Source: Anaerolineae bacterium (GTDB taxonomy: Bacteria; Chloroflexota; Anaerolineae; 4572-78; J111). From it: DNA of 26,903 nt. The stretch is from assembly GCA_020433835.1 (NCBI GenBank), contig JAGRBY010000025.1:1-26903 (forward strand). The letters run 5' to 3'. Both the position numbers and the translations under genes were made by a program. Below are positions 2,845 through 26,764 of this stretch, one piece after another (positions within the stretch are counted from its first letter, which is position 1; each line of letters begins with the position of its first letter). The notes beneath the pieces were generated by a model. It made no database searches. It was not told the DNA's origin and was given only the letters and a program-made list of their open reading frames with translations.

Positions 2845-2951
2845 ACTGACTACACCCTAAATAAAGACTCTAACTAAATTGCTTATTCATCGATAGCATG
2901 ATAAAATGGCGTGCCGATTATCCTTAAATCACATGCGGTATTTGCTACGTA

Positions 2952-3103: not shown

Positions 3104-3130
3104 AATCTCCCACAAAGAGAGTGAGAGATT
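3104..3130. repeat. Imperfect 10 bp stem-loop
   Basis: AATCTCCCAC (3104-3113) pairs with GTGAGAGATT (3121-3130) with a single mismatch around a 7-base loop. The AT-rich surroundings lack a following T-run, so a terminator is unlikely. It could be an operator or RNA hairpin in the leader region. Confidence 0.45.
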
Positions 3131-3245
3131 AGGCTCCAGTTATTTCCCTCATAACTTACTACAACTCCCATTACAAAAATATCGATCTCTTCCTTCATTA
3201 CATTCAACGATTTATTTTGAGTAGTCTATATTGCCATATTTTAAT

Positions 3246-3266
3246 CCCAATTTATATAAAATTGGG
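3246..3266. promoter_or_regulatory. Perfect 8 bp inverted repeat, operator-like
   Basis: CCCAATTT (3246-3253) and AAATTGGG (3259-3266) flank ATATA. A 21 bp dyad with a short AT spacer is the usual shape of a dimeric repressor site. It lies about 650 bp before the PfaA-type start. No regulator gene is present in the window, so assigning it to this operon is inference. Confidence 0.4.
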
Positions 3267-3405
3267 AAGCTTTACATAATTTTGGGGAAGAAACACTGCA
3301 GTTTTGGTCGTTACCTCTTTTTACAACTTATAGCCTCCCAACATATGAGCTAACGATGCCAGTTAGGTCATACTATTTTCATCAATCAAATTAATATTTT
3401 TTACT

Positions 3406-3429
3406 CTTGACAAGTCAATAGCCTTGTCA
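3406..3429. promoter_or_regulatory. TGACAAG/CTTGTCA dyad, one of two related elements
   Basis: TGACAAG (3408-3414) and CTTGTCA (3423-3429) form a perfect 7 bp inverted repeat with an 8 bp spacer. A related element lies at 3047-3066, CTTGAC followed 13 bases later by CTTGTCA. TTGACA here is also a consensus -35 hexamer, but I see no good -10 at 16-18 bases. It is a candidate binding site upstream of the operon. Confidence 0.35.
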
Positions 3430-3479
3430 GAAAAAGGCGTTTGAGTAGATAACTCTAGCGTGTATTTAGTATATTACCA

Positions 3480-3872
3480 TTGCTATTAGAGGAGAGTGTG
3501 AAGAAGTTTTTTATAACCGTTGTCGCCCTAATGACCAATCTTACCAGGTTGGTTGACAAAAATTTCTTATGGACAAATTGGGACTCCGTTGATGCTGTAT
3601 ATTCTCACAACGATGCTCACTTGATCAGAGGGGTAATTGGCTATTTGGATAAGCTAATTGACCGACGGGGCGACGCGCGTCTTCACTTTTATTTTCTTTT
3701 CCCCATAGTATTCAAAGAAATCAAATCGCTGCTTCATCAACTAAAAATAAGAATAGTGGCTTTTATTAACCCCCTCACGACTCATACCTCCTCGCTTCAA
3801 AGTGGAGCAAATTTAAATAAGATGTGGGGCAGGATGTTACTGCTTAACAAAGTATCGCTTCAGTTTAGCTGA
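3480..3872 (+). CDS. Doubtful hypothetical ORF, probably not a gene
   Basis: A 130-codon open frame beginning at TTG. An in-frame GTG at 3498 has a GGAG only three bases upstream, and an in-frame ATG at 3531 has no ribosome binding site. The product has no motif, signal peptide or membrane segment that I recognise, and its composition (many K, N, L, F, I) follows the AT-rich DNA. It ends 41 bases before the PfaA-type gene. I list it only because nothing else fills this stretch. It may be chance, or a decayed remnant. Confidence 0.15.
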   Translation: MLLEESVKKFFITVVALMTNLTRLVDKNFLWTNWDSVDAVYSHNDAHLIRGVIGYLDKLIDRRGDARLHFYFLFPIVFKEIKSLLHQLKIRIVAFINPLTTHTSSLQSGANLNKMWGRMLLLNKVSLQFS

Positions 3873-3913
3873 TGTATGATAATTTACCTTCTGCAGATTA
3901 ATTTGGAGGCAAA

Positions 3914-6900
3914 ATGAACAAAAAAAATACCGATAGCAACTTAACTGCAACGACTTTAAAACATACACCGATCGCTATTATAGGAATGGCCTCTATCTTT
4001 CCCCAGGCTCAAAATTTGGAAGAATATTGGGAAAATATTATTAGGGAAGTTGACTGCATCATAGATGTACCACCTTCTCGTTGGAACGTGGATGATTACT
4101 ACGATCCGGACCCCCGCGCTCGTGATAAAACCTATTGCAAACGCGGCGGTTTCATTCCCGACGTTGATTTCGACCCTCTGGAGTTTGGTATTCCCCCTAA
4201 TGCACTGGAGGCCACGGATGTATCCCAGCTATTATCGTTAGTGGTTGCTCGGAAAGCCATGGCTGATGCCGGGTACGATGAAAACAAAACCTTTAACCGC
4301 GAAAATGCGGGGGTTATTCTGGGTGTTGCCGTGGGGCGACAGTTAGGTATGCCCCTCGGAGGTCGATTGCAATTTCCGGTTTGGGAGCGGGTATTAAAAG
4401 GGTATGGCTTACCGGATAACGATGTTGCCCAGATTGTTGAAAAATTAAAATCGGTCTATGTAGAGTGGCAAGAAAATTCATTTCCGGGGATGCTGGGCAA
4501 TGTGGTGGCGGGCCGCATTGCTAATCGCCTTGATTTAGGCGGGCTAAATTGTGTGGTTGATGCAGCATGTGCCAGTTCTCTGGGTGCGCTCAAGATGGCT
4601 ATTAGTGAATTGGTCGAACGCCGAAGTGATTTAATGATTACAGGCGGGGTCGATACCGACAACTCGATCATGATGTATATGTGCTTCAGTAAGACACCTG
4701 CTTTCTCTCGTCAACAAAACACCAAACCTTTCGACGCTGAGTCGGACGGTATGATGGTGGGAGAGGGCATTGGAATGCTGGTGCTTAAACGACTTGAAGA
4801 TGCCGAACGTGACAACGACCGCATTTATGCAGTTATTCGGGGCATCGGCACGTCAAGCGATGGACGGCATAAAAGCATCTATGCGCCGCGTTCGGGCGGG
4901 CAAGTTAAAGCCTTAGAACGCGCGTATGAAGATGCGGGCATATCGCCTGAGACGGTGGAGCTAATTGAAGCGCACGGCACCGGCACAATGGCGGGTGATC
5001 CAGCCGAACTGGCGGCCTTGAATGAGGTATTTGGCAAAAATAACGGTCATACGCGCCATATTGCGCTGGGAAGCGTAAAATCTCAAATAGGCCATACCAA
5101 AGCCGCTGCCGGTGCAGCCAGTCTTATTAAGGTGGCGCTATCGCTTCACCACAAAGTTCTCCCCCCAACAATTAACGTTACCCAACCTGTCGATGAACTA
5201 AAGGACAATACACCCTTCTATATCAACACAAAAACTCGACCCTGGCTATCACTCCAACCCCAACAACCCCGACGTGCCGGAGTAAGCTCTTTTGGTTTCG
5301 GTGGAACCAATTTTCACGTAGTGCTTGAGGAATACCAGCCTGAGCAGCACCAACCCTACCGCTTGCATGCTTTACCCGCTTCTATCCTGTTGTCTGCGCC
5401 AACCCCAGCTCAATTGCTGGCTCAGTGTCAGAAAACGCTGGCCGATTTACAACGTGATGAAACAAACGCAACCTATCTCGCACTTGTCGAGATGAGTCAA
5501 GCCAAAGTTGTGCCCTCCTCTGAAGCAAGAGTGGGATTTGTAGCTGAGTCACCCGACCAGGCCGGCGAGGCCCTTAAAAAGATCATCGACAACCTTACCA
5601 ACACCCCTCACCAGGAAAGCTGGAACAATCCCCAAGGAATTTACTATCGCCAATCCGGGCTTGATGCGCATCAAAAAATTGTCGCTCTCTTCTCTGGGCA
5701 GGGTTCGCAATATGTGGAAATGGGAGCGGCGCTGGCTATGACCTTGCCACCCTTCCGTGAAGCCTATGCCCATCTCGATCACTTATATGCAAAAGACGGA
5801 CGGCCATCGGTTTCGAGCGTGGTTTTTCCCTATCCCTCTTTTGACAAGGTCGAAAAAGACAACCAGGCTAAGGCGCTACAGCGCACCGAATATGCTCAAC
5901 CGGCTATTGGAGCTATGAGTGTCGGTTTGTACAAAACGCTACAACAGGCGGGTTTCAATCCCGATTTTATAGCCGGGCATAGCTTCGGCGAGTTAACTGC
6001 GCTGTGGGCCGCAAACGCCTTAAGCGATGATGATTATTTTGCTCTGGTCAAAGCCCGAGGAACAGCCATGGCCGCTCCTAACGATCCAAGCTTTGACGCC
6101 GGCTCGATGTTAGCCATTAAAGGCGATATCGAGACGCTTCAGAGTCATATTGATACCTTCCCCGATCTGGTCATTGCCAATTATAACTCTAAGAGCCAGG
6201 CTGTTGTGGCCGGGCCGACAGAAGCCATCGAAAGAGTTCAACCCCTGTTAACCGGCAAAGGTTTCTCGGTTATCAAGCTGCCGGTTTCGGCGGCATTTCA
6301 TACCCCGTTGGTGGGTCATGCCCAACAGCCATTTGCCCAGGCTTTAAATACTGTCCAGTTTCATTCACCGCAAACCCCCACTTATGCCAATGCAACCGGT
6401 GTGCGGTATCCCTCCGAACCAACTTCCATTCGAGACCTGCTGGCTGGGCATATTCTCAAACCGGTTCTCTTTAAACAGCAAATAGAGAATATTTACGCCG
6501 AGGGTGGCTATTGTTTTGTTGAGTTTGGCCCCAAAAATATTCTAACCAAGCTTGTTGATGATACCCTGGCCGACAAACCCCATCTGGCCATCGGGCTTAA
6601 TCCCCACAGCCGACAAGATAGTACGCGCCAACTGCAATCAGCCGTTACCCAGTTACGCGTGATAGGGCTACCTTTGCAAAGTATCGACCGCTACCAGATG
6701 GTACGCTCAACTGAGGAAAAGAAAAAATCGATTGTGAACGTACGCTTAAACGGGACTAACTTTATTAGCGATAAATCAAAAAAGGCAATGGAACTAGCTA
6801 TCAAAAAAGAAGACAGAGTTGTTTCTATAAAGCATGAAAGCACGCCCGAAAAAGCCCCCACGCCAACACCGCCACCAGCACCCGTGTCTCAAGAAAATGG

Positions 6901-9900
6901 GCATACTCCTTCTCGATCTGTTACCACGGATCGAGAGTTGATCGTGGCCCAGCCCCAACAAAGCACAACTATCTTTGAACACAGTCTTGACCAATTTGTT
7001 CGACATCAAAATGACAATGCCCGTGTTCACGAACAATATCTCACCCATCAATCTGAATATTCAAAAACATTCCTTCAACTCATCCAGCAGCAATATACGG
7101 TCTTTTCAAACGGCAGCGTCACTTCGGCTGAAATGGATAAAATACAGACCGTTTTAGAAAGCCTTGAGCGCGGCCTGGATCGTTTTCATGATCATCAAGG
7201 TGAAACCACCCGTATTCACGAACAATTTCTCTCGGGCCAGGTTGAATTTTCCAAATCGTTTACAGAAATGGTTAGGTATCAATACGATTTTCTCAACGGC
7301 GACGCCGGCCATCTGGTTACGGCTAAAATGCCATCGAATGGTGTCCAGACAAACGGACATCCCCATCCAACACCGGCCCCAACGCTAGACAGCCCGCCTC
7401 CCCCAAAAGAACCGGAGGTAGAGAATGTTGCTCCATCACCAACAGCACCGCCTGTTGGGCCTTCGTCAAATGTATCAATCAAAATTGATGTACACCACAT
7501 CTCCAGCATATTGCTCAACGTTGTCAGCGACAAAACCGGCTACCCCATCGAGGTGCTTAACTTAGAGATGGATATGGAAGCTGATCTGGGCATCGACTCT
7601 ATCAAACGGGTTGAAATTTTGGGAGCTATGCAAGAGCACTTCCCCAACCTGCCTACCGTCGACCCCGAAGCGCTAGGCGAACTGCGCACCCTCGGCCAAA
7701 TCATCGACTACGCCAAGGTTAATTTGCCGGTTAATGGCCACGGTCATGCGGCGGCATCATCTCCTCAAACCGTTGAGCCAGCTCGGCCCGATATGGCCTC
7801 ATCAACCACAAAAGACGCATCACAACCAACGGCCCAAAAATTCAACATTGAAGCTATTCTTGATATCCTGCTTAATATTGTCAGCGATAAAACCGGCTAC
7901 CCCATCGAGGTGCTTGACTTAGAGATGGATATGGAAGCCGATCTGGGCATCGACTCTATCAAACGCGTTGAAATTTTGGGAGCTATGCAAGAGCACTTCC
8001 CCAACCTGCCCACCATCGACCCCGAAGTCTTGGGCGAACTGCGTACTCTTGGTCAAATCATCGACTATACAAAAGTTAATATATCAGCAAACGGCCATAG
8101 TCACCCGACTGTAACCGAGAAAGTTGAACCAACACCAACGCAACCTTTGCAAAATCAGGAGTCAGTTCAGCTATCATCAACACCAGTTCTTATAGATCAA
8201 GTAGAAGAATTACCTGCAATCAACAATCAGGTATCTCAATCAACTGTCACCCATCGTGACACAGGTAAAATTTCAATCAAATTGTATCAAGTTATCAGCG
8301 ATAAAACGGCCTATCCAATTGATATTCTTGAGCCTACTATGGATATCAAAACTGATTTAGGCATTGACCAGGTTAAACTCGTTGAAATACTTAACGCCTT
8401 TCAAAACACTTTACTCGGATTGCCAAAGTTGACTCCCGATATTGTTTCCGATGCTCGCACTATCGGCCAACTGGTTGAGGTAATAGCGAAGCATTTTCCG
8501 GATGATAAAGAAGCGGTTACTCCCGATCAACCGGAGGCAATCACAGGGGCTGACTTCAACATTTTTCGCCATGAAGTAAGCCTTGAGCGTCTGCCCGAGC
8601 CTGATTACATGGAGTTTAATCCACCGGCCACGACATGTTGTGTCATTACCGATGATGGCGGGCCAACTACCACAGCGCTAGCGCAGTCTTTGCTTAAACA
8701 AGGTTGGCATCCGGTTGTCTTGAGCTTTCCATTGACCACCATACCAGAGCAGCTTCCGCTACCTGAAAATATAGAGCGCGTTGTTTTGGAAGATTTGAGC
8801 GAAGATCATCTCCAAAAGCAACTGAAGGCCATTGCCAAACAGCATGGCTCCATAGGAGGCTTCATTCACCTCAATCCTAGCTATCCGGTTGGGGCCACAA
8901 TTGTCGAAGCTTTTAGCGAACCACAAAGAGAAATCATTCGACATGTTTTCTTCATGGCAAAGCATCTTAAAGAGTCGCTCACAGACACCACCCAACCAGG
9001 GCGTAGATTCTTCCTCACCGTAACTCGATTGGATGGTCAATTGGGTCTAAGCCGAAAAACCTCTTTCGGCGTCATTGGAGGGGGATTATACGGACTAACA
9101 AAGGCATTAAAACGCGAATGGCCCCTCGTTTTCTGTCGGGCCTTGGATTTAAGCCCGGAGGCCGATAGCGCTCAGGCGGTAGCACAGATCTTGGCCGAAC
9201 TCCACGACCCCATCGGGGAGATTTTGGAAGTGGGTTATGATGGACAAAATCGTACAACGATCATCGCTACCCCTTCTCCCTTAGTAAAAACGACAGCCTC
9301 TGAGGCTCGTACTGTTGCTGAGTCTTCAGTCTTTTTGGTAAGCGGCGGAGGGAAAGGGATTACGGCTCACTGTGCTATCAAATTAGCCGAACAGTATCGC
9401 TGTAAACTTATCTTGTTAGGCCGATCTTCCATAGAAGAACCGGAACCAGCCTGGGCCAACGGGTGTGTTGAAGAGGCGGCTCTAAAGCGGCTCATTGTCG
9501 AAAATCTGTCAGTCAGCGGCCAAAAACCGTCGCCCCACGATATTCAGGCGCTATTCAACACAATTATGTCTAAGCGAGAAATTGCTCAGACATTAAAAGC
9601 CATCCACGAGGCAGGAGGGCAGGCGATTTATCTTAGTGCTGATGTAACCGATAAAGCGGCACTGCAAGAAAAATTATCGCAAGCAACGCAATCGTTAGGA
9701 CCTGTCACCGGTCTTATCCATGGCGCAGGCAATATCGCCGACCGCTGGATCGAAAAGAAAACGGAACGTGATTTCGACCTGGTGTATTCAACCAAAATTG
9801 CAGGTCTAGAAAATTTATTGACCTGTGTTTCACCCGGCAACCTGCAACATCTTGTACTCTTTTCTTCAACCTCCGGTTTTTACGGCAATATAGGCCAAAC

Positions 9901-11041
9901 GGATTATGCCCTAGCCAACGAAATTCTTAACAAAACTGCTCATCTTATGAAGCAACAGTATCCTAACTGCCGAGTAGTTACTATTAACTGGGGGCCATGG
10001 GATGGCGGCATGGTAACAGCGGCATTGAAACGGATTTTTGCGTTGCAAAATGCAGCCCTTATACCGCTTGAAGTCGGCTCTCAGATGCTGATTGAAGAAA
10101 TTGAGTTGGCCAACCCCGACACGGCTCAAATTGTCATCAATAGTCCCAACATGCCCAGCATGCTACCGCCAGATCCCCAAGCAACACCGTCAGACTTACA
10201 AACGTTCCGTATTCATCGCCATATAACACTGGTCGACAATCCGTTTCTTATTGATCACGCCATAGGCAACCAGCCGGTTCTGCCATTTACTTGTGCCGCC
10301 TCTTGGATGATTGAAGCCTGCGAACAACTTAACCCTGGGTACCTTTTTGCCGGTTGGACGAATATAAAAACCTTGAAAGGAATTGTCCTCTCTGAAATAG
10401 CTGAAGGAAAACTAGCACTGGATATCAAAGAGATCTCCAAAGAAAACCCGGGCGAAAGGGAATTAGAAGCCACAATCTGGAGCCAGAATGAAAAGGGGCA
10501 GCTCCGCTATCATTATCAAGGCCAGATCAAACTCGTACGTCGTATTGCTGTCCGCCCAACCTATACGGCTTTTGATCTCACCCAAAAAGAAGCAATAAGC
10601 GGCGAAAGTTTGTATCAAGACCGAACGCTCTTTCACGGCCCAACTTTTCAAGGCGTTGAAAAGGTTTTAAACCTGAGTTCATCGGGGTTGACGATGGTCT
10701 GTAAGCTGCCGGCAGTACCATCAGAGCAGCAGGGGCAATTTTTGGTTCATCGCTTCAACCCTTATATCACAGATGTGCAGCTACACAGCGTTTTAATCTG
10801 GACACAGCTCGTTCATCAAGCAGGCAGCCTGCCTTCGAAGCTATCTCGATATGAACATTTCGAGGTTATCCCTTATAACGAAACCTTCTACATCTCTATG
10901 GAAATTCTATCGACATCAGAACAACTCATCGTGTTTAATATTATTGCTCACGATGCCCAAGGCAACGTATACAATCGGATTACGAGTGGAGAATTCACAA
11001 TTGGACAGCAGCTCAAGCAAATGTTTAAGCAGGTCGGGTAA
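3914..11041 (+). CDS. pfaA: PfaA-type iterative PUFA/lipid synthase, KS-AT-ACPx3-KR-DH'
   Basis: A 2375-residue iterative synthase of the PfaA (myxobacterial Pfa2) type that should build an acyl chain from malonyl units. Order: KS about 18-471 (C219 in DAACASS, H354, H394); AT about 586-900 (GHSFGE S690, H796); Pro/helical linker with two related helical repeats (about 1024-1066 and 1087-1130); ACP1 (S1229) and ACP2 (S1348), both GIDSIKR; a third ACP-like domain with Q1486 in place of the carrier serine; KR about 1570-2060 (GGGKG near 1811-1815, S1985, Y1998 in YALAN); and a C-terminal double-hotdog DH-like domain (H2115, LFHGPTFQ, D2287, H2291). The second DH' motif is atypical: HAIGNQPVLP has Asn where HxxxG has Gly. 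GGAGG four bases before the ATG supports the start. No release domain is present. Known PUFA synthases usually carry four or more functional ACPs, so two is few. Confidence 0.9.
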   Translation: MNKKNTDSNLTATTLKHTPIAIIGMASIFPQAQNLEEYWENIIREVDCIIDVPPSRWNVDDYYDPDPRARDKTYCKRGGFIPDVDFDPLEFGIPPNALEATDVSQLLSLVVARKAMADAGYDENKTFNRENAGVILGVAVGRQLGMPLGGRLQFPVWERVLKGYGLPDNDVAQIVEKLKSVYVEWQENSFPGMLGNVVAGRIANRLDLGGLNCVVDAACASSLGALKMAISELVERRSDLMITGGVDTDNSIMMYMCFSKTPAFSRQQNTKPFDAESDGMMVGEGIGMLVLKRLEDAERDNDRIYAVIRGIGTSSDGRHKSIYAPRSGGQVKALERAYEDAGISPETVELIEAHGTGTMAGDPAELAALNEVFGKNNGHTRHIALGSVKSQIGHTKAAAGAASLIKVALSLHHKVLPPTINVTQPVDELKDNTPFYINTKTRPWLSLQPQQPRRAGVSSFGFGGTNFHVVLEEYQPEQHQPYRLHALPASILLSAPTPAQLLAQCQKTLADLQRDETNATYLALVEMSQAKVVPSSEARVGFVAESPDQAGEALKKIIDNLTNTPHQESWNNPQGIYYRQSGLDAHQKIVALFSGQGSQYVEMGAALAMTLPPFREAYAHLDHLYAKDGRPSVSSVVFPYPSFDKVEKDNQAKALQRTEYAQPAIGAMSVGLYKTLQQAGFNPDFIAGHSFGELTALWAANALSDDDYFALVKARGTAMAAPNDPSFDAGSMLAIKGDIETLQSHIDTFPDLVIANYNSKSQAVVAGPTEAIERVQPLLTGKGFSVIKLPVSAAFHTPLVGHAQQPFAQALNTVQFHSPQTPTYANATGVRYPSEPTSIRDLLAGHILKPVLFKQQIENIYAEGGYCFVEFGPKNILTKLVDDTLADKPHLAIGLNPHSRQDSTRQLQSAVTQLRVIGLPLQSIDRYQMVRSTEEKKKSIVNVRLNGTNFISDKSKKAMELAIKKEDRVVSIKHESTPEKAPTPTPPPAPVSQENGHTPSRSVTTDRELIVAQPQQSTTIFEHSLDQFVRHQNDNARVHEQYLTHQSEYSKTFLQLIQQQYTVFSNGSVTSAEMDKIQTVLESLERGLDRFHDHQGETTRIHEQFLSGQVEFSKSFTEMVRYQYDFLNGDAGHLVTAKMPSNGVQTNGHPHPTPAPTLDSPPPPKEPEVENVAPSPTAPPVGPSSNVSIKIDVHHISSILLNVVSDKTGYPIEVLNLEMDMEADLGIDSIKRVEILGAMQEHFPNLPTVDPEALGELRTLGQIIDYAKVNLPVNGHGHAAASSPQTVEPARPDMASSTTKDASQPTAQKFNIEAILDILLNIVSDKTGYPIEVLDLEMDMEADLGIDSIKRVEILGAMQEHFPNLPTIDPEVLGELRTLGQIIDYTKVNISANGHSHPTVTEKVEPTPTQPLQNQESVQLSSTPVLIDQVEELPAINNQVSQSTVTHRDTGKISIKLYQVISDKTAYPIDILEPTMDIKTDLGIDQVKLVEILNAFQNTLLGLPKLTPDIVSDARTIGQLVEVIAKHFPDDKEAVTPDQPEAITGADFNIFRHEVSLERLPEPDYMEFNPPATTCCVITDDGGPTTTALAQSLLKQGWHPVVLSFPLTTIPEQLPLPENIERVVLEDLSEDHLQKQLKAIAKQHGSIGGFIHLNPSYPVGATIVEAFSEPQREIIRHVFFMAKHLKESLTDTTQPGRRFFLTVTRLDGQLGLSRKTSFGVIGGGLYGLTKALKREWPLVFCRALDLSPEADSAQAVAQILAELHDPIGEILEVGYDGQNRTTIIATPSPLVKTTASEARTVAESSVFLVSGGGKGITAHCAIKLAEQYRCKLILLGRSSIEEPEPAWANGCVEEAALKRLIVENLSVSGQKPSPHDIQALFNTIMSKREIAQTLKAIHEAGGQAIYLSADVTDKAALQEKLSQATQSLGPVTGLIHGAGNIADRWIEKKTERDFDLVYSTKIAGLENLLTCVSPGNLQHLVLFSSTSGFYGNIGQTDYALANEILNKTAHLMKQQYPNCRVVTINWGPWDGGMVTAALKRIFALQNAALIPLEVGSQMLIEEIELANPDTAQIVINSPNMPSMLPPDPQATPSDLQTFRIHRHITLVDNPFLIDHAIGNQPVLPFTCAASWMIEACEQLNPGYLFAGWTNIKTLKGIVLSEIAEGKLALDIKEISKENPGERELEATIWSQNEKGQLRYHYQGQIKLVRRIAVRPTYTAFDLTQKEAISGESLYQDRTLFHGPTFQGVEKVLNLSSSGLTMVCKLPAVPSEQQGQFLVHRFNPYITDVQLHSVLIWTQLVHQAGSLPSKLSRYEHFEVIPYNETFYISMEILSTSEQLIVFNIIAHDAQGNVYNRITSGEFTIGQQLKQMFKQVG
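7523..8081 (+). repeat. Tandem duplication of the ACP coding segment
   Basis: About 200 bases beginning at 7523 recur beginning at 7880, an offset of 357 bp or 119 codons. By hand alignment I count roughly 18 mismatches, mostly synonymous, with long identical runs around both GIDSIKR motifs. The segment between them is a Pro/Ala/Thr-rich linker that is not conserved. The third, inactive ACP-like domain is much more diverged and is not part of this recent duplication. Confidence 0.85.
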
Positions 11042-11100
11042 CCTGGCCTTTTAGATTGTTTGATTTTTACTTGTCGATACTGTTAACTACCAATTCTATA

Positions 11101-11106
11101 GGAGAG
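11101..11106 (+). promoter_or_regulatory. Ribosome binding site that fixes a TTG start
   Basis: GGAGAG lies six bases before a TTG at 11113-11115. The longest open frame would begin at another TTG (11056) that has no ribosome binding site, so 11113 is the better start for the radical SAM gene. Confidence 0.75.
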
Positions 11107-11112
11107 AAAACG

Positions 11113-12762: not shown

Positions 12763-12780
12763 TAACAGAAAGCAGACTCT

Positions 12781-18675: not shown

Positions 18676-20696
18676 TGTCGAATAAAAACGGTTTGAATTT
18701 TCTTGGTACTGATCATAGTCGCTTGACCTGGCAAGGTCCGGTCGAAGCTATTGTTTTTGATAGCGCTGCCTTTAAAGACATATTGCTCAATTTGAGCCAG
18801 CTCTGCTTTGTTGTTAAAAGCGGCAATCAAATGGGATTAACAACAGCAGGTCGACTTTGTACAGATGACATCGACACCACCGATGCAGTTGATGTGTTGG
18901 CTATTGTGCCACCTTTAACGCCTAACCAGTTAGGTGATGCTGCCTTTTGTACCCACCACGGGGTAAAGATGGCTTATTCCAGCGGAGCCATGGCCAACGG
19001 CATTGCCAGCGAGGAGGTTGTTATCAGTATGGGTCAAGCACAACTCTTGGCCTCATTTGGAGCAGCCGGTCTGCCACCCGCACGCCTCAAAGCGGCTATC
19101 GAGCGTATTAAATCCGCTTTACCCCATGGCCCTTACGCCTTTAACCTTATCCACAGCCCCAGTGAAGAAGCGCTCGAACAGAATGCCGTCGAGATGTACC
19201 TTGACCATGGTATTTCGACGATTGAAGCATCGGCCTTTCTCGATTTAACACCCCACGTGGTACGCTATCGCGCAGCCGGACTAGCCCTTAATGCGCATAA
19301 TGAAATTGAAATCAACCATAAAATTATTGCCAAACTTTCACGTCGAGAAGTTGCCACCAAGTTTATGGAACCGGCTCCGGCCAAAATTTTAGGCCCGTTG
19401 GTTCAGCAAGGCCTTATCACCGAACTCCAAGCAAATTTGGCGCAAAAAGTATCGATGGCCGATGATATTACCGTCGAAGCCGACTCCGGAGGCCACACCG
19501 ATAACCAACCGCTGGTTGGTTTACTGCCCGCTATTCTGGCTCTTCGCGACGAGATTCAGGCCAAATACAATTATCCGAACCCCATCCGCGTGGGAGCCGC
19601 CGGAGGCATCAGCACCCCGGCCTCCGCTTTGGGTGCATTTATGATGGGCGCAGCTTACGTGGTCAGCGGTTCGGTCAACCAATCTTGTCTGGAAGCTAAT
19701 GCTTCGCCTCACACCAAAAATCTTCTGGCGCAGGCTGATATGGCCGATGTAATTATGGCTCCGGCCGCTGATATGTTTGAGATGGGAGTCAAAGTTCAGG
19801 TTCTCAAACGGGGTACGCTTTTCCCCATGCGAGCACAAAAACTGTTTGATATCTACAAAAGCTGCGATTCTATTGAAGATATTCCCGCCACTGAACGAGA
19901 CAAACTGGAAAAACAGATTTTCAAACGCAGCTTAGAATCAGTTTGGAACGATACTGTCGCCTATTTTAACGAACGCGATCCTGACCAAATTAGCCGGGCC
20001 GCCAACAATTCTAAACGCAAAATGGCCCTCATCTTCCGCTGGTATTTAGGCCTATCCTCAAATTGGTCTAACACCGGCGAAGCGGGACGCGAGATTGATT
20101 ACCAAATCTGGTGCGGCCCCTCAATGGGTGCCTTCAATGCCTGGGTCAAAGGCACCTATCTAGAAGATGCTAGCCAGCGCCGGGTGGTTGATGTAGCCCA
20201 TCACATTATGACCGGTGCAGCTTATTTATATCGCCTCAACACGCTCAAAGTTCTAGGCATTGAAATACCCGCCAGCATATGGCGCTATGAACCGACACCA
20301 TTCGAGCAACCATCATCCACTGTGGAGCCGACCTTACCTTTAACTAAAACTCCGCAACCACAAGAATTAGCAACGAAGGTCATCGAGCCAATGGCGGCAA
20401 CTTCAAAATCGATTAAACGCGTTGAAGAAATTCAAGATTGGCTGGTTGAGCATTTAGCAGACCGCCTAAAAGTAAGTATTGATGAGATTGATATTCGCGA
20501 ACCTTTTAGCAGTTATGATCTTAGCTCGGCCCAGGTTTTGGTCTTGGCGGGGAAGTTGGAAGAGTGGCTTGAATGCCAGCTCTCGCCCACGTTATTATGG
20601 AATTATCCAACTATTGAAGCCCTTGCAGACCGTTTAGCCGAAGAAACTGACTTTTCAAAATTAGCTGTAGAAGCAGGCACAAACGAAGGAGCATAA
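18672..20696 (+). CDS. pfaD: PfaD-type enoyl reductase fused to a C-terminal ACP
   Basis: The first 540 or so residues are a PfaD flavin-dependent enoyl reductase of the nitronate monooxygenase-like TIM-barrel family. Landmarks are VEADSGGHTDN (H275), GAAGGISTP and the C-terminal block RWYLGLSSNWSNTGEAGREIDYQIWCGPSMGAFN (given here in pieces only for its key residues W, G, E and C). It should reduce enoyl-ACP double bonds in trans for the synthases on either side. After a Pro/Thr linker, about 575-660 is a carrier domain: SYDLSSAQVLVLAGKLEEWL, S619 at the phosphopantetheine position (Asp before it replaced by S618), then SPTLLWNYPTIEALA. That ending resembles ACPs used with fatty acyl-AMP ligases or type I PKSs. 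Known PfaD proteins stop before this domain. The start overlaps the upstream stop by four bases. Confidence 0.88.
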   Translation: MMSNKNGLNFLGTDHSRLTWQGPVEAIVFDSAAFKDILLNLSQLCFVVKSGNQMGLTTAGRLCTDDIDTTDAVDVLAIVPPLTPNQLGDAAFCTHHGVKMAYSSGAMANGIASEEVVISMGQAQLLASFGAAGLPPARLKAAIERIKSALPHGPYAFNLIHSPSEEALEQNAVEMYLDHGISTIEASAFLDLTPHVVRYRAAGLALNAHNEIEINHKIIAKLSRREVATKFMEPAPAKILGPLVQQGLITELQANLAQKVSMADDITVEADSGGHTDNQPLVGLLPAILALRDEIQAKYNYPNPIRVGAAGGISTPASALGAFMMGAAYVVSGSVNQSCLEANASPHTKNLLAQADMADVIMAPAADMFEMGVKVQVLKRGTLFPMRAQKLFDIYKSCDSIEDIPATERDKLEKQIFKRSLESVWNDTVAYFNERDPDQISRAANNSKRKMALIFRWYLGLSSNWSNTGEAGREIDYQIWCGPSMGAFNAWVKGTYLEDASQRRVVDVAHHIMTGAAYLYRLNTLKVLGIEIPASIWRYEPTPFEQPSSTVEPTLPLTKTPQPQELATKVIEPMAATSKSIKRVEEIQDWLVEHLADRLKVSIDEIDIREPFSSYDLSSAQVLVLAGKLEEWLECQLSPTLLWNYPTIEALADRLAEETDFSKLAVEAGTNEGA

Positions 20697-20699
20697 CGT

Positions 20700-23600
20700 A
20701 TGGAACCAATTGCCATCATTGGAATTGGCTGCCGTTTTCCGGGAGCTAAAAATCCGGAGGCTTACTGGAAACTTTTACGAAACGGCGTCGATGCAATTCG
20801 TGAAGTTCCTAAAGACCGTTGGGATATCGACTCCTTTTATCACCCGGATCTAACCGAACCGGGCAAAATGAATACGCGCTGGTCGGGTTTTTTGGATCAA
20901 ATTGATCAGTTTGATGCGCACTTTTTTGGAATATCACCGCGCGAGGCGTCAAGCTTAGATCCACAGCAACGGCTGCTGTTGGAAGTTGCATGGGAAGCTT
21001 TAGAAGATGCCGGTCAGGTTCTTGACGAGTTAGCCAATACACCCACCGGTGTATTCGTTGGCATCTCTAGCACAGATTATCAACGTCAAGTGAATAACCC
21101 CGAATTGATCGATGCCTATATTGGAACCGGAAATTTATTTAGCATCGCAGCCGGACGCATCTCCTATCTGTTTAATTTGCGGGGACCAAATTTGGCTGTC
21201 GACACAGCCTGCTCCTCGTCACTGTTGGCGGTACATTTGGCCTGCCAAAGTCTACAAAACGGCGAATCAACGCTGGCTCTAGCGGGGGGCGTTAACGTCA
21301 TCCTGTCGCCCAGCAGCACTATTGTGCTCTCAAAACTGTCGGCGCTCTCGCCCGATGGGCGCTGTAAAACGTTTGATGCCAAAGCTAACGGCTATGTGCG
21401 CGGCGAGGGCGCGGGTATGGTTGTCCTCAAACGCTTATCAGATGCCATAAAAGACAAAGACCCGATTTATGCTGTCATTCGCGGCAGTGCCGTTAACCAC
21501 GACGGACGCAGCAATGGCTTAACCGCTCCCAACGGACCGTCTCAAGAAGCGCTCATTCGTCAGGCTTTGAAAAATGCCGGAGTAACGCCGGCAGACGTAA
21601 GCTATATCGAAGCGCACGGCACCGGCACGCCGCTCGGTGACCCTATAGAGGTTATGGCGTTAGGCAACGTACTGTCAGAGAATCGTTCAGCGGACTCGTA
21701 TTGTGCGCTTGGTTCGGTAAAAACCAATATTGGTCACCTTGAAGCCGCAGCCGGAATTGCCAGTTTGGTCAAGGTTGCCCTGGCGATAAAGCATCGCGAA
21801 ATTCCGCCAAGCCTTCATTTTAATGAACCTAATCCTTATATTCCCTTTGATCGCTTGCCGTTACGGGTACAGCACCGATTGGGAACCTGGACCAATGGCT
21901 CTGTCCCCATCGTCGCCGGTATTAGCTCATTTGGTTTCTCAGGGACAAATGTCCACACCATTTTGTCAAATGCACCGACGCCATCAACACCACCGCGTGC
22001 GTACCACCCTTTTATGGCCAGCAACCCTCAAATACTTCCTTTGTCGGCCCGCAGTGAGCAAGGGTTACGTTCGTTAGCGCATGAATATCGCGATTTTCTC
22101 GTGATGCAAGGGCCAAATGGAACTACATCGCTGCAAGATATGTGTTACACAGCCGGTGTACGCCGGTCTCATCACGATTATCGGCTGGCCTTAGTTTTTG
22201 AAGATTGGGCCGAAATTGTTGATCAGCTAGAATGTTATGTCCAGAAGGAAAGCGGAGCTGGGATTTTTAGTGGACGCAAACATCCTAGCCGTCGTCCCAA
22301 ATTGGTTTTTGTCTTTGCCGGGCAAGGTCCCCAATGGTGGGCGATGGGGCGCGAACTGTTGAGCCAAGAACCGCTGTTTCGCGCTACAATCGAGCAAATC
22401 GATCAACTCCTGCGCGAGAAGGCTGGAGCCGATTGGTCGTTGGTAACGGAGTTAACGGCCAAAGAGGCTGAGTCACGGCTTGATCAGACAGAAATTGCTC
22501 AACCGGCTATTTTTGCGCTGCAAGTGGCTCTGGCTGCATTATGGCGCAGCTGGGATATTGAACCGGATGCGGTTGTTGGACACAGCATGGGCGAAGTGGC
22601 TGCTGCTTATATTTCCGGCGGTCTACCCCTCTCCACTGCGGTTCAGATCATTTACCATCGCGGCCGTCTGATGCAGCGGGCAACCGGCCAGGGTAAGATG
22701 GCAGCGGTTGATTTGCCCGTAAGCGAAACGAAACGGATTTTAGCCGGTTACGAAGATCGTCTCTCCATCGCGGCTATCAATGGTCCGTCCTCTACGGTGA
22801 TTGCCGGTGAAGAAGCCGCCTTAGACATGGTTATGCAGTCGCTTGAGAAGGAAAATGTGTTTGTGCGTAAGCTGCCGGTCAACTATGCCTTTCATAGTCC
22901 TCAAATGGAGCCGTTTTTAGATGAGTTGGAAGAGGTGCTCCACGGTATCGACTTTCGACATCCGGCGCTGCCGTTGTTTTCTACGGTTACGGGCCAACTG
23001 CTCAATGGCCACAATCTGGATGCCGGTTACTGGCGTAAAAACGTTCGAGAACCCATTCGTTTTGCCGATGCGATTGAGGGGTTAATCACAGCCGGTCACA
23101 ACATCTTTTTGGAAATTAGCCCGCATCCGGTTTTGGGCGGAGCAATTTCACAAGTGTTCCATCAAGTAGAACGACAAGGGGTTATTTTGCCATCCCTTCG
23201 ACGCGGTGAGAAAGAGCAGCGCACCATGCTCAATGCTATGGGAACCCTCTATAGCGTCGGTTATCCAATTGAATGGAGCCGCCTATATCCTGACGGAGGA
23301 CAATGCGTGCCGCTTCCGGCTTACCCCTGGCAGCGCGAACGCTATTGGCTTGAGCATACGGACTCTATGACTGTTGCTCCGGTAGAGGCAGAAGCTACAA
23401 TTTCTACAGCAATGGCAGCGCATCCCTTGCTGGGTTATCGTTTGCCAAATCTGGCTCACCGGCCAAAAGATTATTCATGGGAGATCAAACTTGACCCGCG
23501 ACAGGTCGGCTATTTAGCAGACCACCGAGTACGGGGGTTGATGGTCCTTCCGGCCGCGGCATTTATAGAAATGGCCGTTGCTGCTGCCATTGAGGTTTTT

Positions 23601-24719
23601 GGTGAGGTACCCATAACGCTGGCTGATGTTACCTTTCAGGAGGCTCTATTTATTCCGCCGGGCAAAGCGCGAACGATCCAGATAACTTTATCAGCCCAAA
23701 ATTCCGATCTCATTACATTTCAAATCTTTAGTCTGCCCGTCTTCGCGGAACACGATTCCACAGCCTGGACGCTTCATGCTTCAGGTACCCTTGATCCAAC
23801 TTTATCCGATAACGAACCTCAATCGCCAGAAACAACTGCTGCTGAACCTAGTGAGGCTATTCTAGAACGTTGTTCAACGCAAGTGGCACCGGCAGAGTAT
23901 TACCAAAAGCTTCACGAGCGTGGATTAGAATATGGGTCGTTGTTCCAGGGCATCGACCAATTGTGGCGACGTGATGGAGAGGCACTAGGACGGGTTCAGT
24001 TGCCCGATGCGCTTCGTGCCGAATTCGAGCAATACCATCTTCATCCGGCTCTGCTGGATGCCGGCTTACAAACGCTAGGCCTAAGCTTATCGAGCAATGG
24101 CAACCATGCAAACACAACGGCTATCTACATTCCCACCGGCCTGGAGAGTGTGCATATCTATCAACCTCTGCCTTCCACCTTATGGAGCCACGCCTATCGA
24201 GATGTTGACGCTCAGCAGGCTGATGATTTCTTTACCGGCAATATACACTTTTTAGATGAAGCGGGGCAGCTTGTCGCCAAATTAACCGGCTTTCGATTGC
24301 AGCGGCTGGGTCAAACGACCGAAGCCGCCATTGAAGATATTCGCAGCAATGCCGAATTCGAGCCGGATGTTATTTCAGCTGAGGTTGAGGTAAGTAGCAG
24401 CCAGCCCAGAACTGAAAACACGTCTCAGAATAATGGCGGTTTAACACGTCAGGCAATTTTGAAAGCAGACGAACAAGAGCGCCAGCCTATGTTAGAAGAT
24501 TTTCTCCGCCAGCAGATCGCTAAAACGATGAAACTGACTACGGCAAAAGTGGATATTCACAAGCCTCTTGAGGAGCAAGGATTCGACTCGTTGATGGCTA
24601 TTGAAGTTAAGTATCGAGTTGAAAGTGAACTAGAGATTGAAATACCCGTACGGAACCTGGTTGAAAAACCAACTGTAGCCAGTTTGGCCGGTCAACTAGA
24701 CAAATTACTTTTGGCGTAG
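20700..24719 (+). CDS. Single-module type I polyketide synthase, KS-AT-DH-ACP
   Basis: 1339 residues. KS about 1-426 has C171 in DTACSSS, H306 and H346, the ordinary modular or iterative type I pattern unlike the DAACASS of the two Pfa-type KSs. AT about 534-820 has S629 in GHSMGE and H732 in YAFHS, a motif mixed between malonyl (HAFHS) and methylmalonyl (YASHS) types. DH about 906-1203 has H942 in HRVRGLMVLP, YGSLFQG, and D1120/Q1124 in DAGLQ, so it looks active. ACP about 1265-1335 has S1297 in GFDSL. Only about 60 linker residues lie between DH and ACP, so there is no KR or ER. Any keto group would need reduction in trans, perhaps by the PfaA-type KR and PfaD-type ER. AAGGAG sits 8 bases before the ATG inside the end of the upstream gene. 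Confidence 0.92.
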   Translation: MEPIAIIGIGCRFPGAKNPEAYWKLLRNGVDAIREVPKDRWDIDSFYHPDLTEPGKMNTRWSGFLDQIDQFDAHFFGISPREASSLDPQQRLLLEVAWEALEDAGQVLDELANTPTGVFVGISSTDYQRQVNNPELIDAYIGTGNLFSIAAGRISYLFNLRGPNLAVDTACSSSLLAVHLACQSLQNGESTLALAGGVNVILSPSSTIVLSKLSALSPDGRCKTFDAKANGYVRGEGAGMVVLKRLSDAIKDKDPIYAVIRGSAVNHDGRSNGLTAPNGPSQEALIRQALKNAGVTPADVSYIEAHGTGTPLGDPIEVMALGNVLSENRSADSYCALGSVKTNIGHLEAAAGIASLVKVALAIKHREIPPSLHFNEPNPYIPFDRLPLRVQHRLGTWTNGSVPIVAGISSFGFSGTNVHTILSNAPTPSTPPRAYHPFMASNPQILPLSARSEQGLRSLAHEYRDFLVMQGPNGTTSLQDMCYTAGVRRSHHDYRLALVFEDWAEIVDQLECYVQKESGAGIFSGRKHPSRRPKLVFVFAGQGPQWWAMGRELLSQEPLFRATIEQIDQLLREKAGADWSLVTELTAKEAESRLDQTEIAQPAIFALQVALAALWRSWDIEPDAVVGHSMGEVAAAYISGGLPLSTAVQIIYHRGRLMQRATGQGKMAAVDLPVSETKRILAGYEDRLSIAAINGPSSTVIAGEEAALDMVMQSLEKENVFVRKLPVNYAFHSPQMEPFLDELEEVLHGIDFRHPALPLFSTVTGQLLNGHNLDAGYWRKNVREPIRFADAIEGLITAGHNIFLEISPHPVLGGAISQVFHQVERQGVILPSLRRGEKEQRTMLNAMGTLYSVGYPIEWSRLYPDGGQCVPLPAYPWQRERYWLEHTDSMTVAPVEAEATISTAMAAHPLLGYRLPNLAHRPKDYSWEIKLDPRQVGYLADHRVRGLMVLPAAAFIEMAVAAAIEVFGEVPITLADVTFQEALFIPPGKARTIQITLSAQNSDLITFQIFSLPVFAEHDSTAWTLHASGTLDPTLSDNEPQSPETTAAEPSEAILERCSTQVAPAEYYQKLHERGLEYGSLFQGIDQLWRRDGEALGRVQLPDALRAEFEQYHLHPALLDAGLQTLGLSLSSNGNHANTTAIYIPTGLESVHIYQPLPSTLWSHAYRDVDAQQADDFFTGNIHFLDEAGQLVAKLTGFRLQRLGQTTEAAIEDIRSNAEFEPDVISAEVEVSSSQPRTENTSQNNGGLTRQAILKADEQERQPMLEDFLRQQIAKTMKLTTAKVDIHKPLEEQGFDSLMAIEVKYRVESELEIEIPVRNLVEKPTVASLAGQLDKLLLA

Positions 24720-24746
24720 TTAAAAGTAAACTTCGAGGAAAAATTG

Positions 24747-25832
24747 ATGGGTTTAGATGTTAAGTATGCAAATTTGCGATCGCGTATTTTCTTAAAACGA
24801 CGCTTTGAAGAACAATTTTGTATTCCATTACAGCAGCCTGTAAAGCAGGTTGAAAGTTTTATGCTTTGGTATGAGGAAAATGTTCTAAAGGTTGATACGA
24901 GCGATATTAAAATTGATCGTCCCATCTTTCTTGTTGGTTTGCCACGCTCTGGGACAACAATGATGCAAGATCTTCTCTGCGCACATCCTCAGATAGCCTA
25001 TATTACCAATATTATGCATCAATTTCGAAAAGCCCCTTGTGCAGCAGAAGATTTACGCAAGCGTCTCAAGCTCGACTTTGAAGGAGAACGCTATTTACGG
25101 GATAGTGTCAAGGTCAGTTTAGGATCACCAAATGAAGGGCACGCCTTTTTCATCGATTGGTACGGACTTGATCCCTATGCCCTAGAATATGTTAAACATG
25201 ACCTGAGCGACTTTCCCTTGGAGCAGATAGAACAAGCTCGTGATACGATGCGCAAAATTATCTGGTGCTTCAAAGGCAAAGGCGTGCGTTTCTTCAACAA
25301 AAATCCGGGCCTCACTGTTTATATTACCCTATTAAAAGATATGTTTCCTGACGCTAAGATAATCCACATGGTGCGCGATGCTCGCAAATGTGCCAACTCT
25401 ATGCTTAAGCTCTTTAAGCACAATCAGGCTCAGGAAATTAAGGTCAGAGACAAACTGGGTTTAGATAGAGATCGATATTTCATACCGTACCCTCGTGTAC
25501 CCAAATTGGTTGAGTATTTAGAGGCTTATGGCCCCAATGATATTCGAACAACAGCCAACATCTGGAATGACACAATTACTATGGTTGCCGAGCAAAAAGA
25601 TGATGTCCCCTTTTTCTATGAAGTGCGTTTTGAGGATATTTTGGCCGATCCCCAAGTAGAAATTAAAAAAATCTTGGATTTCTGCGAACTTCCAGAGGTT
25701 GAAGACCAGAGCACACCCTTTTGGCAAAAAATCAAAAAGATTGGCAAGGTAAGCCATACCAATAACTATGGCAATTTTGAGATGGTTGAAGAAATTTGTA
25801 AAACCTATATGAAGCAGTACGGATATTTATAA
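24747..25832 (+). CDS. PAPS-dependent sulfotransferase
   Basis: 361 residues from ATG 24747, preceded by GAGGAA with a six-base spacer; a TTG directly before it is not needed. The 5'-phosphosulfate loop is GLPRSGTT (64-71) after the IDRPIFLV strand, and the 3'-phosphate motif is IIHMVRDARKCANSML with R210 and S218. These mark the sulfotransferase family (Sulfotransfer_1/3 type), which moves sulfate from PAPS to a hydroxyl or amine. The acceptor is unknown. Its place directly after the PKS module, 27 bases downstream, suggests the acyl product or its beta-hydroxyl. There is no signal peptide, so it should be cytoplasmic. No PAPS synthesis genes are in the window. Confidence 0.88.
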   Translation: MGLDVKYANLRSRIFLKRRFEEQFCIPLQQPVKQVESFMLWYEENVLKVDTSDIKIDRPIFLVGLPRSGTTMMQDLLCAHPQIAYITNIMHQFRKAPCAAEDLRKRLKLDFEGERYLRDSVKVSLGSPNEGHAFFIDWYGLDPYALEYVKHDLSDFPLEQIEQARDTMRKIIWCFKGKGVRFFNKNPGLTVYITLLKDMFPDAKIIHMVRDARKCANSMLKLFKHNQAQEIKVRDKLGLDRDRYFIPYPRVPKLVEYLEAYGPNDIRTTANIWNDTITMVAEQKDDVPFFYEVRFEDILADPQVEIKKILDFCELPEVEDQSTPFWQKIKKIGKVSHTNNYGNFEMVEEICKTYMKQYGYL

Positions 25833-25846
25833 AGAGCGTTATCTCT

Positions 25847-26764
25847 ATGTGTCGCATTTTAGTACTGTACTATTCACAGTCTGGTGAAGTGACCAAAGCG
25901 GTTACATCATTCATTAAACATCTTGATACACCACACAATGAAGTGGTTTGGGAATGTATTAAACCTAAAGAAACATATCCATATCCCTGGAAAAGTGTTT
26001 ATGAATTTTTTGACGTTTTTCCCGAGTGTGTCAATCTAGAGCCTCCTGAAATTGAACCACCCTCGTTTGATCCGGACCAAAAGTTCGATCTAATCATTTT
26101 GGCCTATCAGGTTTGGTTTCTGGCTCCTTCGTTACCTATACAAGGATTTCTAAAATCGCCTTACGCCCGCGTAATGCAAAACACCAAAGTGATTACGCTG
26201 ATCGTTTGTCGAAGTATGTGGCATTCGGCTTCAGAAACCATGAAGCAAATTATAGCCGAGCAGGACGGAATTCTTATCGACAATGTGGTTGTTACCTTTA
26301 AGGGTCCGCCGCTAGCTACCTTTATTAGTACACCTCGAAGACTACTGAGTGGAAAAAAAGATAAATTCATGGGCTTACCGGAAGCCGAAACCGACAACGA
26401 AGATATAAAAATGTTAGAGATGTTCGGCAAAGCGGTTGCCGAACATGTTGAGTCGTTGCCTGACGACTCTCATCGCTCTCTTTTGAAAGGGTTAGGGGCC
26501 GTAAAAGTCAACAGACGCTATGCTGTTTTGGAACGTATTGGCTACTACTCGTACCATTACCCATGGGCCAAGGTGGCTCGATTGTTTGGTGGCCCCAAAA
26601 GCAGTCTCCGCAGGCCTATTATTTATATGTTTGTAGGAAATTTGGTTTTAACCTTACCGCTAGGTCTTTTTTTAGCACTCATCATTCAGCCCTTGATAAG
26701 TCCTTTTTTGCATAACCAAATCGAAGATTATATCAATCAGTTAGAATCACCTTCAGGATCTTAA
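25847..26764 (+). CDS. Flavodoxin-fold protein, dialkylresorcinol condensing enzyme-like (NAD(P)H oxidoreductase-like)
   Basis: 305 residues. The N-terminal ILVLYYSQSGEVTKAV is a flavodoxin FMN-phosphate loop. YPYPWKSVYEFFDVFPE, DLIILAYQVWFLAPSLPI and TLIVCRSMWHSA are the conserved blocks of a family often annotated as dialkylresorcinol condensing enzyme or NAD(P)H-dependent oxidoreductase, found in aryl-polyene/flexirubin and related lipid loci. A hydrophobic segment near the C-terminus (about 264-288) looks like one membrane helix, perhaps two if it is a hairpin. That suggests membrane-linked redox or tailoring. It follows the sulfotransferase by 14 bases and is the last operon gene in view. 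The family name rests on weak biochemical grounds, so no reaction is claimed; flavin-dependent reduction is the safest guess. Confidence 0.75.
   Translation: MCRILVLYYSQSGEVTKAVTSFIKHLDTPHNEVVWECIKPKETYPYPWKSVYEFFDVFPECVNLEPPEIEPPSFDPDQKFDLIILAYQVWFLAPSLPIQGFLKSPYARVMQNTKVITLIVCRSMWHSASETMKQIIAEQDGILIDNVVVTFKGPPLATFISTPRRLLSGKKDKFMGLPEAETDNEDIKMLEMFGKAVAEHVESLPDDSHRSLLKGLGAVKVNRRYAVLERIGYYSYHYPWAKVARLFGGPKSSLRRPIIYMFVGNLVLTLPLGLFLALIIQPLISPFLHNQIEDYINQLESPSGS

What the first reader, a model, noticed from the sequence alone, without database searches (positions are those of the whole stretch)
3914..26764. Hybrid PUFA-synthase/PKS operon with radical SAM, sulfotransferase and flavodoxin-fold tailoring genes
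Seven closely packed + strand genes combine a PfaA/PfaC/PfaD-type iterative synthase with a radical SAM protein, an ER-ACP fusion, a one-module type I PKS, a sulfotransferase and a dialkylresorcinol-cluster-like flavodoxin. The core is familiar from PUFA and heterocyst-glycolipid loci. The full set is not a pathway I recognise, and may make an undescribed modified, possibly sulfated, long-chain lipid or polyketide.
Basis: partly seen in the sequence, partly recalled or inferred. Interest (0 to 1): 0.8.

Follow-up and report, generated by a model that had tools for sequence, protein, structure and literature searches.

The report
Hybrid lipid synthase operon with sulfotransferase
An uncultured bacterium carries one tightly packed operon that joins an omega-3-style fatty acid factory to a polyketide step, a radical enzyme and a sulfate-adding cassette, probably to make an undescribed sulfated lipid; the parts are of known kinds, the full combination was not found elsewhere in this study.

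Summary
Seven + strand genes (3914-26764; spacings -4 to 24 nt with the listed starts) encode PfaA, a radical SAM protein, a PfaBC fusion, PfaD-ACP, a KS-AT-DH-ACP PKS, a Sulfotransfer_3 protein and a flavodoxin-fold protein. PfaA, PfaB-type and PfaD models pass their cut-offs. It is a hybrid PUFA-synthase/PKS 'secondary lipid' cluster, but not a canonical PUFA synthase: PfaC has one FabA-like DH unit where two comparators have two, and one of three ACPs has lost its serine. The ACP fused to PfaD resembles the PKS ACP, so it probably hands the chain to the PKS. The radical SAM model is nearest AprD4 and TsrM. Sulfotransferase and flavodoxin (a DarA-type relative) share eight other contig lengths, above chance, and look like one cassette; the radical SAM list shares none with them. 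Precedents cover pieces: PUFA-PKS-NRPS hybrids, PfaD-ACP, DarA-type clusters, and the sponge-symbiont swf operon (PKS/FAS, sulfotransferase, radical SAM; product unknown). No match to the full set was found. Best reading: a sulfated, possibly phenolic, long-chain lipid. New variant of a known kind.

The parts
3914..11041 (+). pfaA: KS-MAT-ACP-ACP-(ACP, Ser to Gln)-KR-DH, 2375 aa
   Evidence: TIGR02813 2247.8 bits, cut-off 1010.1; Pfam domains; motifs
11113..12762 (+). radical SAM protein, 549 aa, CxxxCxxC; degenerate B12-type N-terminal domain; fold nearest AprD4/TsrM
   Evidence: Pfam Radical_SAM 29.7 bits vs 29.5; alignment; model pLDDT 87.6 and fold search; start
12781..18675 (+). pfaBC fusion: KS-CLF-AT-one FabA-like DH unit, 1964 aa
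   Evidence: TIGR02816 pfaB 158.9 bits vs 144.3; FabA 111 bits; one DH unit against two in the two comparators
18672..20696 (+). pfaD enoyl reductase fused to a PKS-type ACP, 674 aa
   Evidence: TIGR02814 652.9 bits vs 449.25; PP-binding 51.3 bits; ACP comparison
20700..24719 (+). type I PKS module KS-AT-DH-ACP, no KR, AT motif AFH (malonyl type, recalled rule), 1339 aa
   Evidence: CurL second of the PDB rows; DH nearest CurF/CurK
24744..25832 (+). sulfotransferase (Sulfotransfer_3), 362 aa
   Evidence: 113.3 bits, RSGTT motif (5'-PSB role recalled); relatives
25847..26764 (+). flavodoxin/WrbA-fold protein with two long C-terminal helices that look hydrophobic by eye, DarA-like ('dialkylrecorsinol condensing enzyme')
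   Evidence: model, fold search, 28% to a gene in an ACP-KASIII-x-oxidoreductase run on a Streptomyces plasmid
2845..3913 (.). 1.07-kb upstream region, presumed to hold the operon's promoter
   Evidence: promoter-like sites no more than in shuffles (3 against a mean of 4.8)

Best explanation
One operon for a hybrid specialised lipid. Shown by sequence: PfaA, PfaBC and PfaD form an iterative PUFA-type synthase with two serine-bearing ACPs and a single FabA-like dehydratase unit. Inferred: it builds a long, partly unsaturated acyl chain. The PKS-type ACP fused to PfaD takes the finished chain and presents it to the next-door KS-AT-DH-ACP module, which adds one or a few malonyl units without its own ketoreduction, leaving beta-keto carbons. 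The DarA-like flavodoxin, probably membrane-bound through its C-terminal helices, and the sulfotransferase then act as a two-gene cassette on the head group: the flavoprotein oxidises or aromatises it and the sulfotransferase puts sulfate from PAPS on the resulting hydroxyl. The radical SAM enzyme edits the chain or an intermediate (deoxygenation, methylation or C-C bond formation; not resolved). The product would be a sulfated, possibly phenolic, long-chain lipid. Release and phosphopantetheinylation enzymes must lie elsewhere.
For: Operon spacing; PfaA, PfaB-family and PfaD over curated cut-offs; the PfaD ACP aligns with the PKS ACP (score 80, 17 of 69 identical) far better than with the PfaA ACPs (23-29), and its best NCBIfam partner is the N-terminal ACP stretch of Pks13 (positions 3-79, 42 bits, far under that long model's cut-off); PfaD-ACP is published in PUFA-PKS-NRPS hybrids. 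The ST and FLV homolog lists (120 shown of 232 and of 955) share eight contig lengths besides the window's, against a mean of 0.89 and a maximum of 3 for lists shifted by 1-40 nt; in all eight the two rows come from the same kind of source, and in one (9,548 nt) both rows are named Planctomycetota. DarA is listed as 'DAR-aromatase' and 'dialkylrecorsinol condensing protein' in Azoarcus.
Against: No second locus with the whole gene set. The radical SAM family is not tied to a true Pfa synthase: PfaD is not over its cut-off in any of the 3 other genomes that carry it. The DH of the PKS looks like an ordinary modular DH (CurF 3e-42), so ring formation by this PKS is not indicated, and no KASIII (DarB) partner is in the window. 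No TE, PPTase or transporter hit in the ten ORFs scanned. The flavodoxin is about 28% identical to the one relative seen in a KASIII/ACP setting; none of the eight shared contigs belongs to a flavodoxin row with a cyanobacterial name, so the DarA-type names and the link to the sulfotransferase come from different members of the family. Shared contig length is indirect and does not show what else is on those contigs.
Confidence: 0.45

Rival explanations
1. No ring is formed. The operon makes an alkyl or hydroxyalkyl sulfate: the synthase chain keeps a hydroxyl that is sulfated, as proposed for the sponge swf operon, and the flavodoxin is only an electron carrier for the radical SAM enzyme or a reductase.
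For: swf (PKS/FAS, thioester reductase + sulfotransferase, radical SAM) is a published precedent with that proposal. Radical SAM enzymes need low-potential electrons, which flavodoxins can supply (established knowledge).
Against: The flavodoxin list shares contig lengths with the sulfotransferase list (8) and not with the radical SAM list (0 besides the window); it has long C-terminal helices and DarA-type names among its relatives, unlike a plain electron carrier.
Confidence: 0.27
2. The PKS is an iterative aromatic synthase of the AviM/CalO5 kind (KS-AT-PT-ACP) that primes with the PUFA-type chain and makes an alkyl-resorcylic acid, which is then sulfated; an analogue of the Azotobacter ars system with a type I ring-maker.
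For: Same domain order and lack of KR as AviM; coupling of a pfa-like synthase with ring-forming type III PKSs is described for Azotobacter (type P); weak hit of the region to the fungal product-template model (62 bits, cut-off 168).
Against: AviM PT has under 20% identity to earlier structures (19% to CurF DH), whereas this domain matches CurF/CurK at about 1e-42 with HxxxGxxxxP and HPALLDAxxQ; KS-AT scores best with modular enzymes such as CurL.
Confidence: 0.1
3. Chance adjacency: the pfa-radical SAM-PKS genes and the ST-FLV cassette are two neighbouring pathways with separate products.
For: ST-FLV appears to live elsewhere without the radical SAM family.
Against: Gaps of 24 and 14 nt on the same strand, no gene between.
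Confidence: 0.1
4. The sulfotransferase activates a beta-hydroxyl for decarboxylative loss, as in CurM/Ols, giving a terminal alkene.
For: A PKS module next to a sulfotransferase; curacin-type KS-AT and DH relatives.
Against: No TE and no KR to make the beta-hydroxyl in this module; the CurM sulfotransferase (4gbm) matches at E 0.074 and 4gox (Ols sulfotransferase, recalled) at 0.44, against 1.5e-7 for tyrosylprotein sulfotransferase.
Confidence: 0.04

Closest known systems
Hybrid PUFA synthase-PKS-NRPS clusters (zeamine, fabclavine, megapolipeptin, chitinimine; PMC13291983, abstract and section 7 part 1 of 2 read)
   Same: pfa-like genes beside PKS; fused pfaBC in some; PfaD with an extra ACP in clade III
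   Different: No NRPS here; radical SAM, sulfotransferase and DarA-like genes instead
swf operon of sponge symbionts/Poribacteria (PMC3908369, passages read)
   Same: type I PKS/FAS + sulfotransferase + B12-type radical SAM; product unknown, alkyl sulfate proposed
   Different: SwfA is one KS-AT-DH-ER-KR-ACP protein; its ST is fused to a thioester reductase; the window radical SAM finds relatives in only 2 of 84 Poribacteria genomes at 1e-20
PUFA (Pfa) synthase loci, with Persicobacter (L049) and Streptomyces (L048, L050) plasmid loci as comparators
   Same: PfaA-PfaC-PfaD order; 51% identity over 980 aa of PfaA and 54% PfaD with Persicobacter
   Different: One FabA-like DH unit instead of two (L049, L050), 2 serine ACPs against 5 in Persicobacter, radical SAM inserted, ACP on PfaD
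Secondary lipid synthase types of Shulse and Allen, esp. type G (pfa + type I PKS in cyanobacteria), P (ars) and F (hgl) (PMC3098273, section 5 parts 1-2 of 3 read)
   Same: pfa-like synthase linked to a PKS, proposed for a head/tail product
   Different: No type III PKS; extra tailoring genes
DarA/DarB dialkylresorcinol clusters, including cyanobacterial ones (PMC3949708, PMC3992019, PMC8406957, passages read)
   Same: DarA-type gene
   Different: No DarB (KASIII) in the window
AprD4, TsrM, MgmA, OxsB (radical SAM with B12-type N-terminal fold)
   Different: 13-16% identity; reaction of the window protein unknown

Membership tests
PUFA (Pfa) synthase | PfaA of the TIGR02813 family | tested here: met
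   2247.8 bits, cut-off 1010.1
PUFA (Pfa) synthase | PfaD enoyl reductase | tested here: met
   652.9 bits, cut-off 449.25
PUFA (Pfa) synthase | PfaC with KS-CLF and two FabA-like DH units | tested here: not met
   KS and CLF present; one DH unit (residues 1541-1964), which aligns to two units each in the Persicobacter and Streptomyces comparators and to no second place in its own protein
PUFA (Pfa) synthase | tandem ACPs in PfaA | tested here: met
   two LGIDS repeats, one LGIDQ
PUFA (Pfa) synthase | PPTase (PfaE) in the cluster | tested here: inconclusive
   no PPTase hit in the ten ORFs scanned; may lie elsewhere in the genome, as in other organisms
PUFA (Pfa) synthase | makes PUFA | not testable with these tools
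   no product data
Hybrid PKS-NRPS-PUFA clusters | PKS and NRPS genes beside pfa genes | tested here: not met
   PKS yes; no NRPS domain among the ten + strand ORFs scanned
Heterocyst glycolipid (type F) cluster | HglC KS-CLF-AT without FabA-type DH | tested here: not met
   FabA domain 111 bits
swf operon | thioester reductase-sulfotransferase fusion (SwfB) | tested here: not met
   stand-alone 362-aa sulfotransferase
swf operon | SwfC-type radical SAM | tested here: inconclusive
   no SwfC sequence at hand; 2 of 84 Poribacteria genomes match the window protein at 1e-20
DarA/DarB dialkylresorcinol pathway | DarA homolog | tested here: inconclusive
   several cyanobacterial relatives at 49-62% carry the UniRef name dialkylrecorsinol condensing enzyme and one at 28% stands beside KASIII; no characterised DarA sequence was compared
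DarA/DarB dialkylresorcinol pathway | DarB (KASIII) condensing enzyme | tested here: not met
   no KASIII hit; only E 0.14 inside PfaC; the contig ends 139 nt after the flavodoxin
AviM-type orsellinic acid synthase | KS-AT-PT-ACP with a product-template rather than DH domain | tested here: inconclusive
   order KS-AT-DH-ACP met; domain nearest CurF/CurK DH; AviM itself was not compared
CurM/Ols decarboxylating sulfotransferase | ST of the CurM type with a TE | tested here: not met
   E 0.074 to CurM ST; no TE
Radical SAM superfamily | CxxxCxxC cluster motif | tested here: met
   present in 63 of 64 proteins P0001-P0064, the window's own included
Cobalamin-binding radical SAM (class B) | cobalamin bound by the N-terminal domain | not testable with these tools
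   fold similar; DxHxxG in the first 200 residues of 3 of 64, but not all class B enzymes have it (recalled)

The most novel reading that the evidence does not exclude
A new class of membrane lipid: a PUFA-synthase chain edited by a radical SAM enzyme that sits inside the synthase operon, passed through a PfaD-borne ACP to a PKS, closed to a phenolic head by a DarA-type flavoprotein without DarB, and sulfated, giving a sulfated phenolic lipid.
Probability: 0.15. Interest if true: 0.72.

Novelty: new variant of a known kind. Interest (0 to 1): 0.45.

Why it matters
PUFA-type synthases keep turning up joined to other machinery. This locus shows a hand-over design that can be tested directly (a PKS-type ACP carried by the enoyl reductase), places a radical SAM enzyme inside a pfa operon, and points to a two-gene cassette (sulfotransferase + DarA-like flavoprotein) whose second member has no Pfam or NCBIfam hit and which, if the shared contig lengths mean what they seem to, occurs in more than one phylum and may mark sulfated lipids.

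Tried and rejected
Tried without result: whole genome of the window (none held); Rfam scan (nothing); viral contigs for the flavodoxin (none of 29 stretches) and for the radical SAM (28 weak loci at 22-27%, not followed); flavodoxin in 84 Poribacteria and 400 Chloroflexota genomes, none at 1e-30; PfaD-ACP in the orders of the two genomes with the nearest PRPP synthetase (0 of 7 and 0 of 13 at 1e-60); radical SAM in 298 genomes of one Chloroflexota class (none at 1e-40). These five empty genome searches have no positive control. The radical SAM search that did ring found 2 of 84 Poribacteria and 1 of 400 Chloroflexota, genomes already known. Placement of the host is weak: the nearest radical SAM with a named source is from a Chloroflexota MAG (72%), the nearest PRPP synthetase among 400 Chloroflexota genomes is 63%; other phyla were not compared.

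Considered and rejected: product-template reading of the PKS DH; CurM-like alkene formation; swf membership (no reductase fusion; attempts to reach SwfB/SwfC through PF13469 and PF07993 in Poribacteria, showed no open frame near SwfB's 832-839 aa in the listed rows; the 12 best rows printed from a comparison of the window ST with 30 Poribacteria ST loci are 21-25% identical). Foldseek and VIA lists prove nothing about families that are not in them.

Full report
What is there. The window is a complete 26,903-nt contig (the window's own proteins are listed with that contig length). Upstream lie a cysteine-desulfurase-like gene (230-1501) and a PRPP synthetase (1867-2844), then 1.07 kb without a convincing gene; a 130-aa ORF at 3480-3872 has no Pfam or NCBIfam hit. 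From 3914 to 26764 seven + strand genes follow with stop-to-start spacings of 14, 18, -4, 3, 24 and 14 nt as listed. The radical SAM start should be moved to TTG 11113, where AGGAGAG precedes it and where 20 of 26 aligned proteins begin; the first spacing is then 71 nt.

The synthase core. PfaA scores 2247.8 bits against TIGR02813 (cut-off 1010.1), the acyltransferase part of the third protein 158.9 bits against the PfaB family (cut-off 144.3), and PfaD 652.9 bits against TIGR02814 (cut-off 449.25). KS active-site Cys/His/His are present in PfaA, PfaC and the PKS; the second KS-like domain of PfaC lacks the Cys (LSAEEN), as a chain-length factor does. Persicobacter and Streptomyces plasmid loci serve as comparators: same pfaA-pfaC-pfaD order, PfaD 54%, 53% and 51%, PfaA 51% over 980 aa in Persicobacter. 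Two differences matter. The PfaC proteins of L049 (Persicobacter) and L050 (Streptomyces) each hold two FabA-like DH units; the window protein holds one, nearer the first (44% and 42%) than the second (27% and 28%). Persicobacter PfaA has five LGIDS ACPs; the window has two plus one LGIDQ. So the synthase is of Pfa type but a set of cis double bonds like EPA's cannot be assumed. In work on Thraustochytrium summarised in PMC9667614 (passages) a synthase with a mutated DH2 still made DHA while one with a mutated DH1 did not, so a single DH1-like unit may still give unsaturation.

Hand-over to the PKS. The ACP at the end of PfaD aligns with the PKS ACP at score 80 (17 of 69 identical) and with the three PfaA ACPs at 23-29. 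Its best NCBIfam partner is the N-terminal ACP stretch of Pks13 (42 bits, under that model's cut-off of 2100), which in mycolate synthesis takes a preformed long chain to a KS-AT (recalled). PfaD with an extra ACP is reported for clade III (megapolipeptins and kin) of PUFA-PKS-NRPS hybrids (PMC13291983, section 7 part 1). The PKS follows 3 nt later. I infer that the PfaD ACP carries the chain to it. The PKS is KS-AT-DH-ACP with an AFH (malonyl-type, recalled rule) AT motif and no KR, ER or TE hit. Its KS-AT scores high with modular enzymes such as CurL and its DH best with CurF/CurK. That argues against an AviM-type aromatic synthase despite the same domain order: AviM's product-template domain is only 19% identical to CurF DH (PMC9135731, parts 1-2 of 6). 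The nearest plasmid PKSs (45% and less) sit in unrelated clusters.

What is known. The held library contains openly licensed PMC papers only. Searches of it found none with radical SAM, PUFA synthase, sulfotransferase and gene cluster together and none with Chloroflexi, PUFA synthase and heterocyst glycolipid; two with PfaD, radical SAM, polyunsaturated and polyketide synthase, neither of which places a radical SAM in a pfa cluster in the passages seen. The closest published idea is swf of sponge symbionts, met through: PKS/FAS, reductase-sulfotransferase and B12-type radical SAM, product unknown, an alkyl sulfate proposed (PMC3908369, passages). swf lowers the novelty of the enzyme mix but is built from a different synthase and a fused sulfotransferase. 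PMC11804610 (one passage) notes PUFA-type synthases related to hgl islands in some Chloroflexi. pfa-like clusters linked to type I PKS genes with unknown products were noted in 2011 (type G, PMC3098273).

Verdict. A real, intact-looking operon; a new variant of the hybrid PUFA-synthase/PKS secondary lipid cluster. The PUFA-type core is well supported, the PKS hand-over and the sulfation fairly; the aromatic head and the radical SAM reaction are open.

Noticed in passing
window 26793-26875: 29-nt inverted repeat (79% complementary, 25 nt between the arms; a 15-nt stretch matches perfectly) just before the contig end; looks like a small mobile or repeated element where the assembly stopped.
   Followed up: partly
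L009 1-17084 and L011 567-6251 (Poribacteria genome G001): Two related radical SAM genes in tandem behind a two-protein ER-KS-AT-ACP-ACP-KR-DH / KS-AT-ACP-DH-PPTase synthase; on another contig a radical SAM C-terminal part, a phosphodiesterase, an alpha/beta hydrolase and a B12-type radical SAM (681 aa) lie in a row. I did not look for a published description.
   Followed up: partly
L003 1277-5370 (Chloroflexi genome G003): Phosphodiesterase - alpha/beta hydrolase - radical SAM in a row, the same three gene types as in the Poribacteria genome, in another phylum.
   Followed up: no
loci L051-L080 and table: 62 of 81 Poribacteria genomes carry Sulfotransfer_3 genes at 1e-15, often two in a row about 1.2 kb apart.
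   Followed up: no
L016 10565-19065 (Streptomyces plasmid NZ_CP109562): ACP-KASIII-DarA-like-oxidoreductase-SCP2-FabF-P450 run, a plasmid-borne pathway that looks dialkylresorcinol-like.
   Followed up: no
table, P0041-P0064: A second group of radical SAM relatives (32-38%, mostly about 650 aa); 10 of 24 are labelled haloalkane dehalogenase by one source, probably a wrong name.
   Followed up: no
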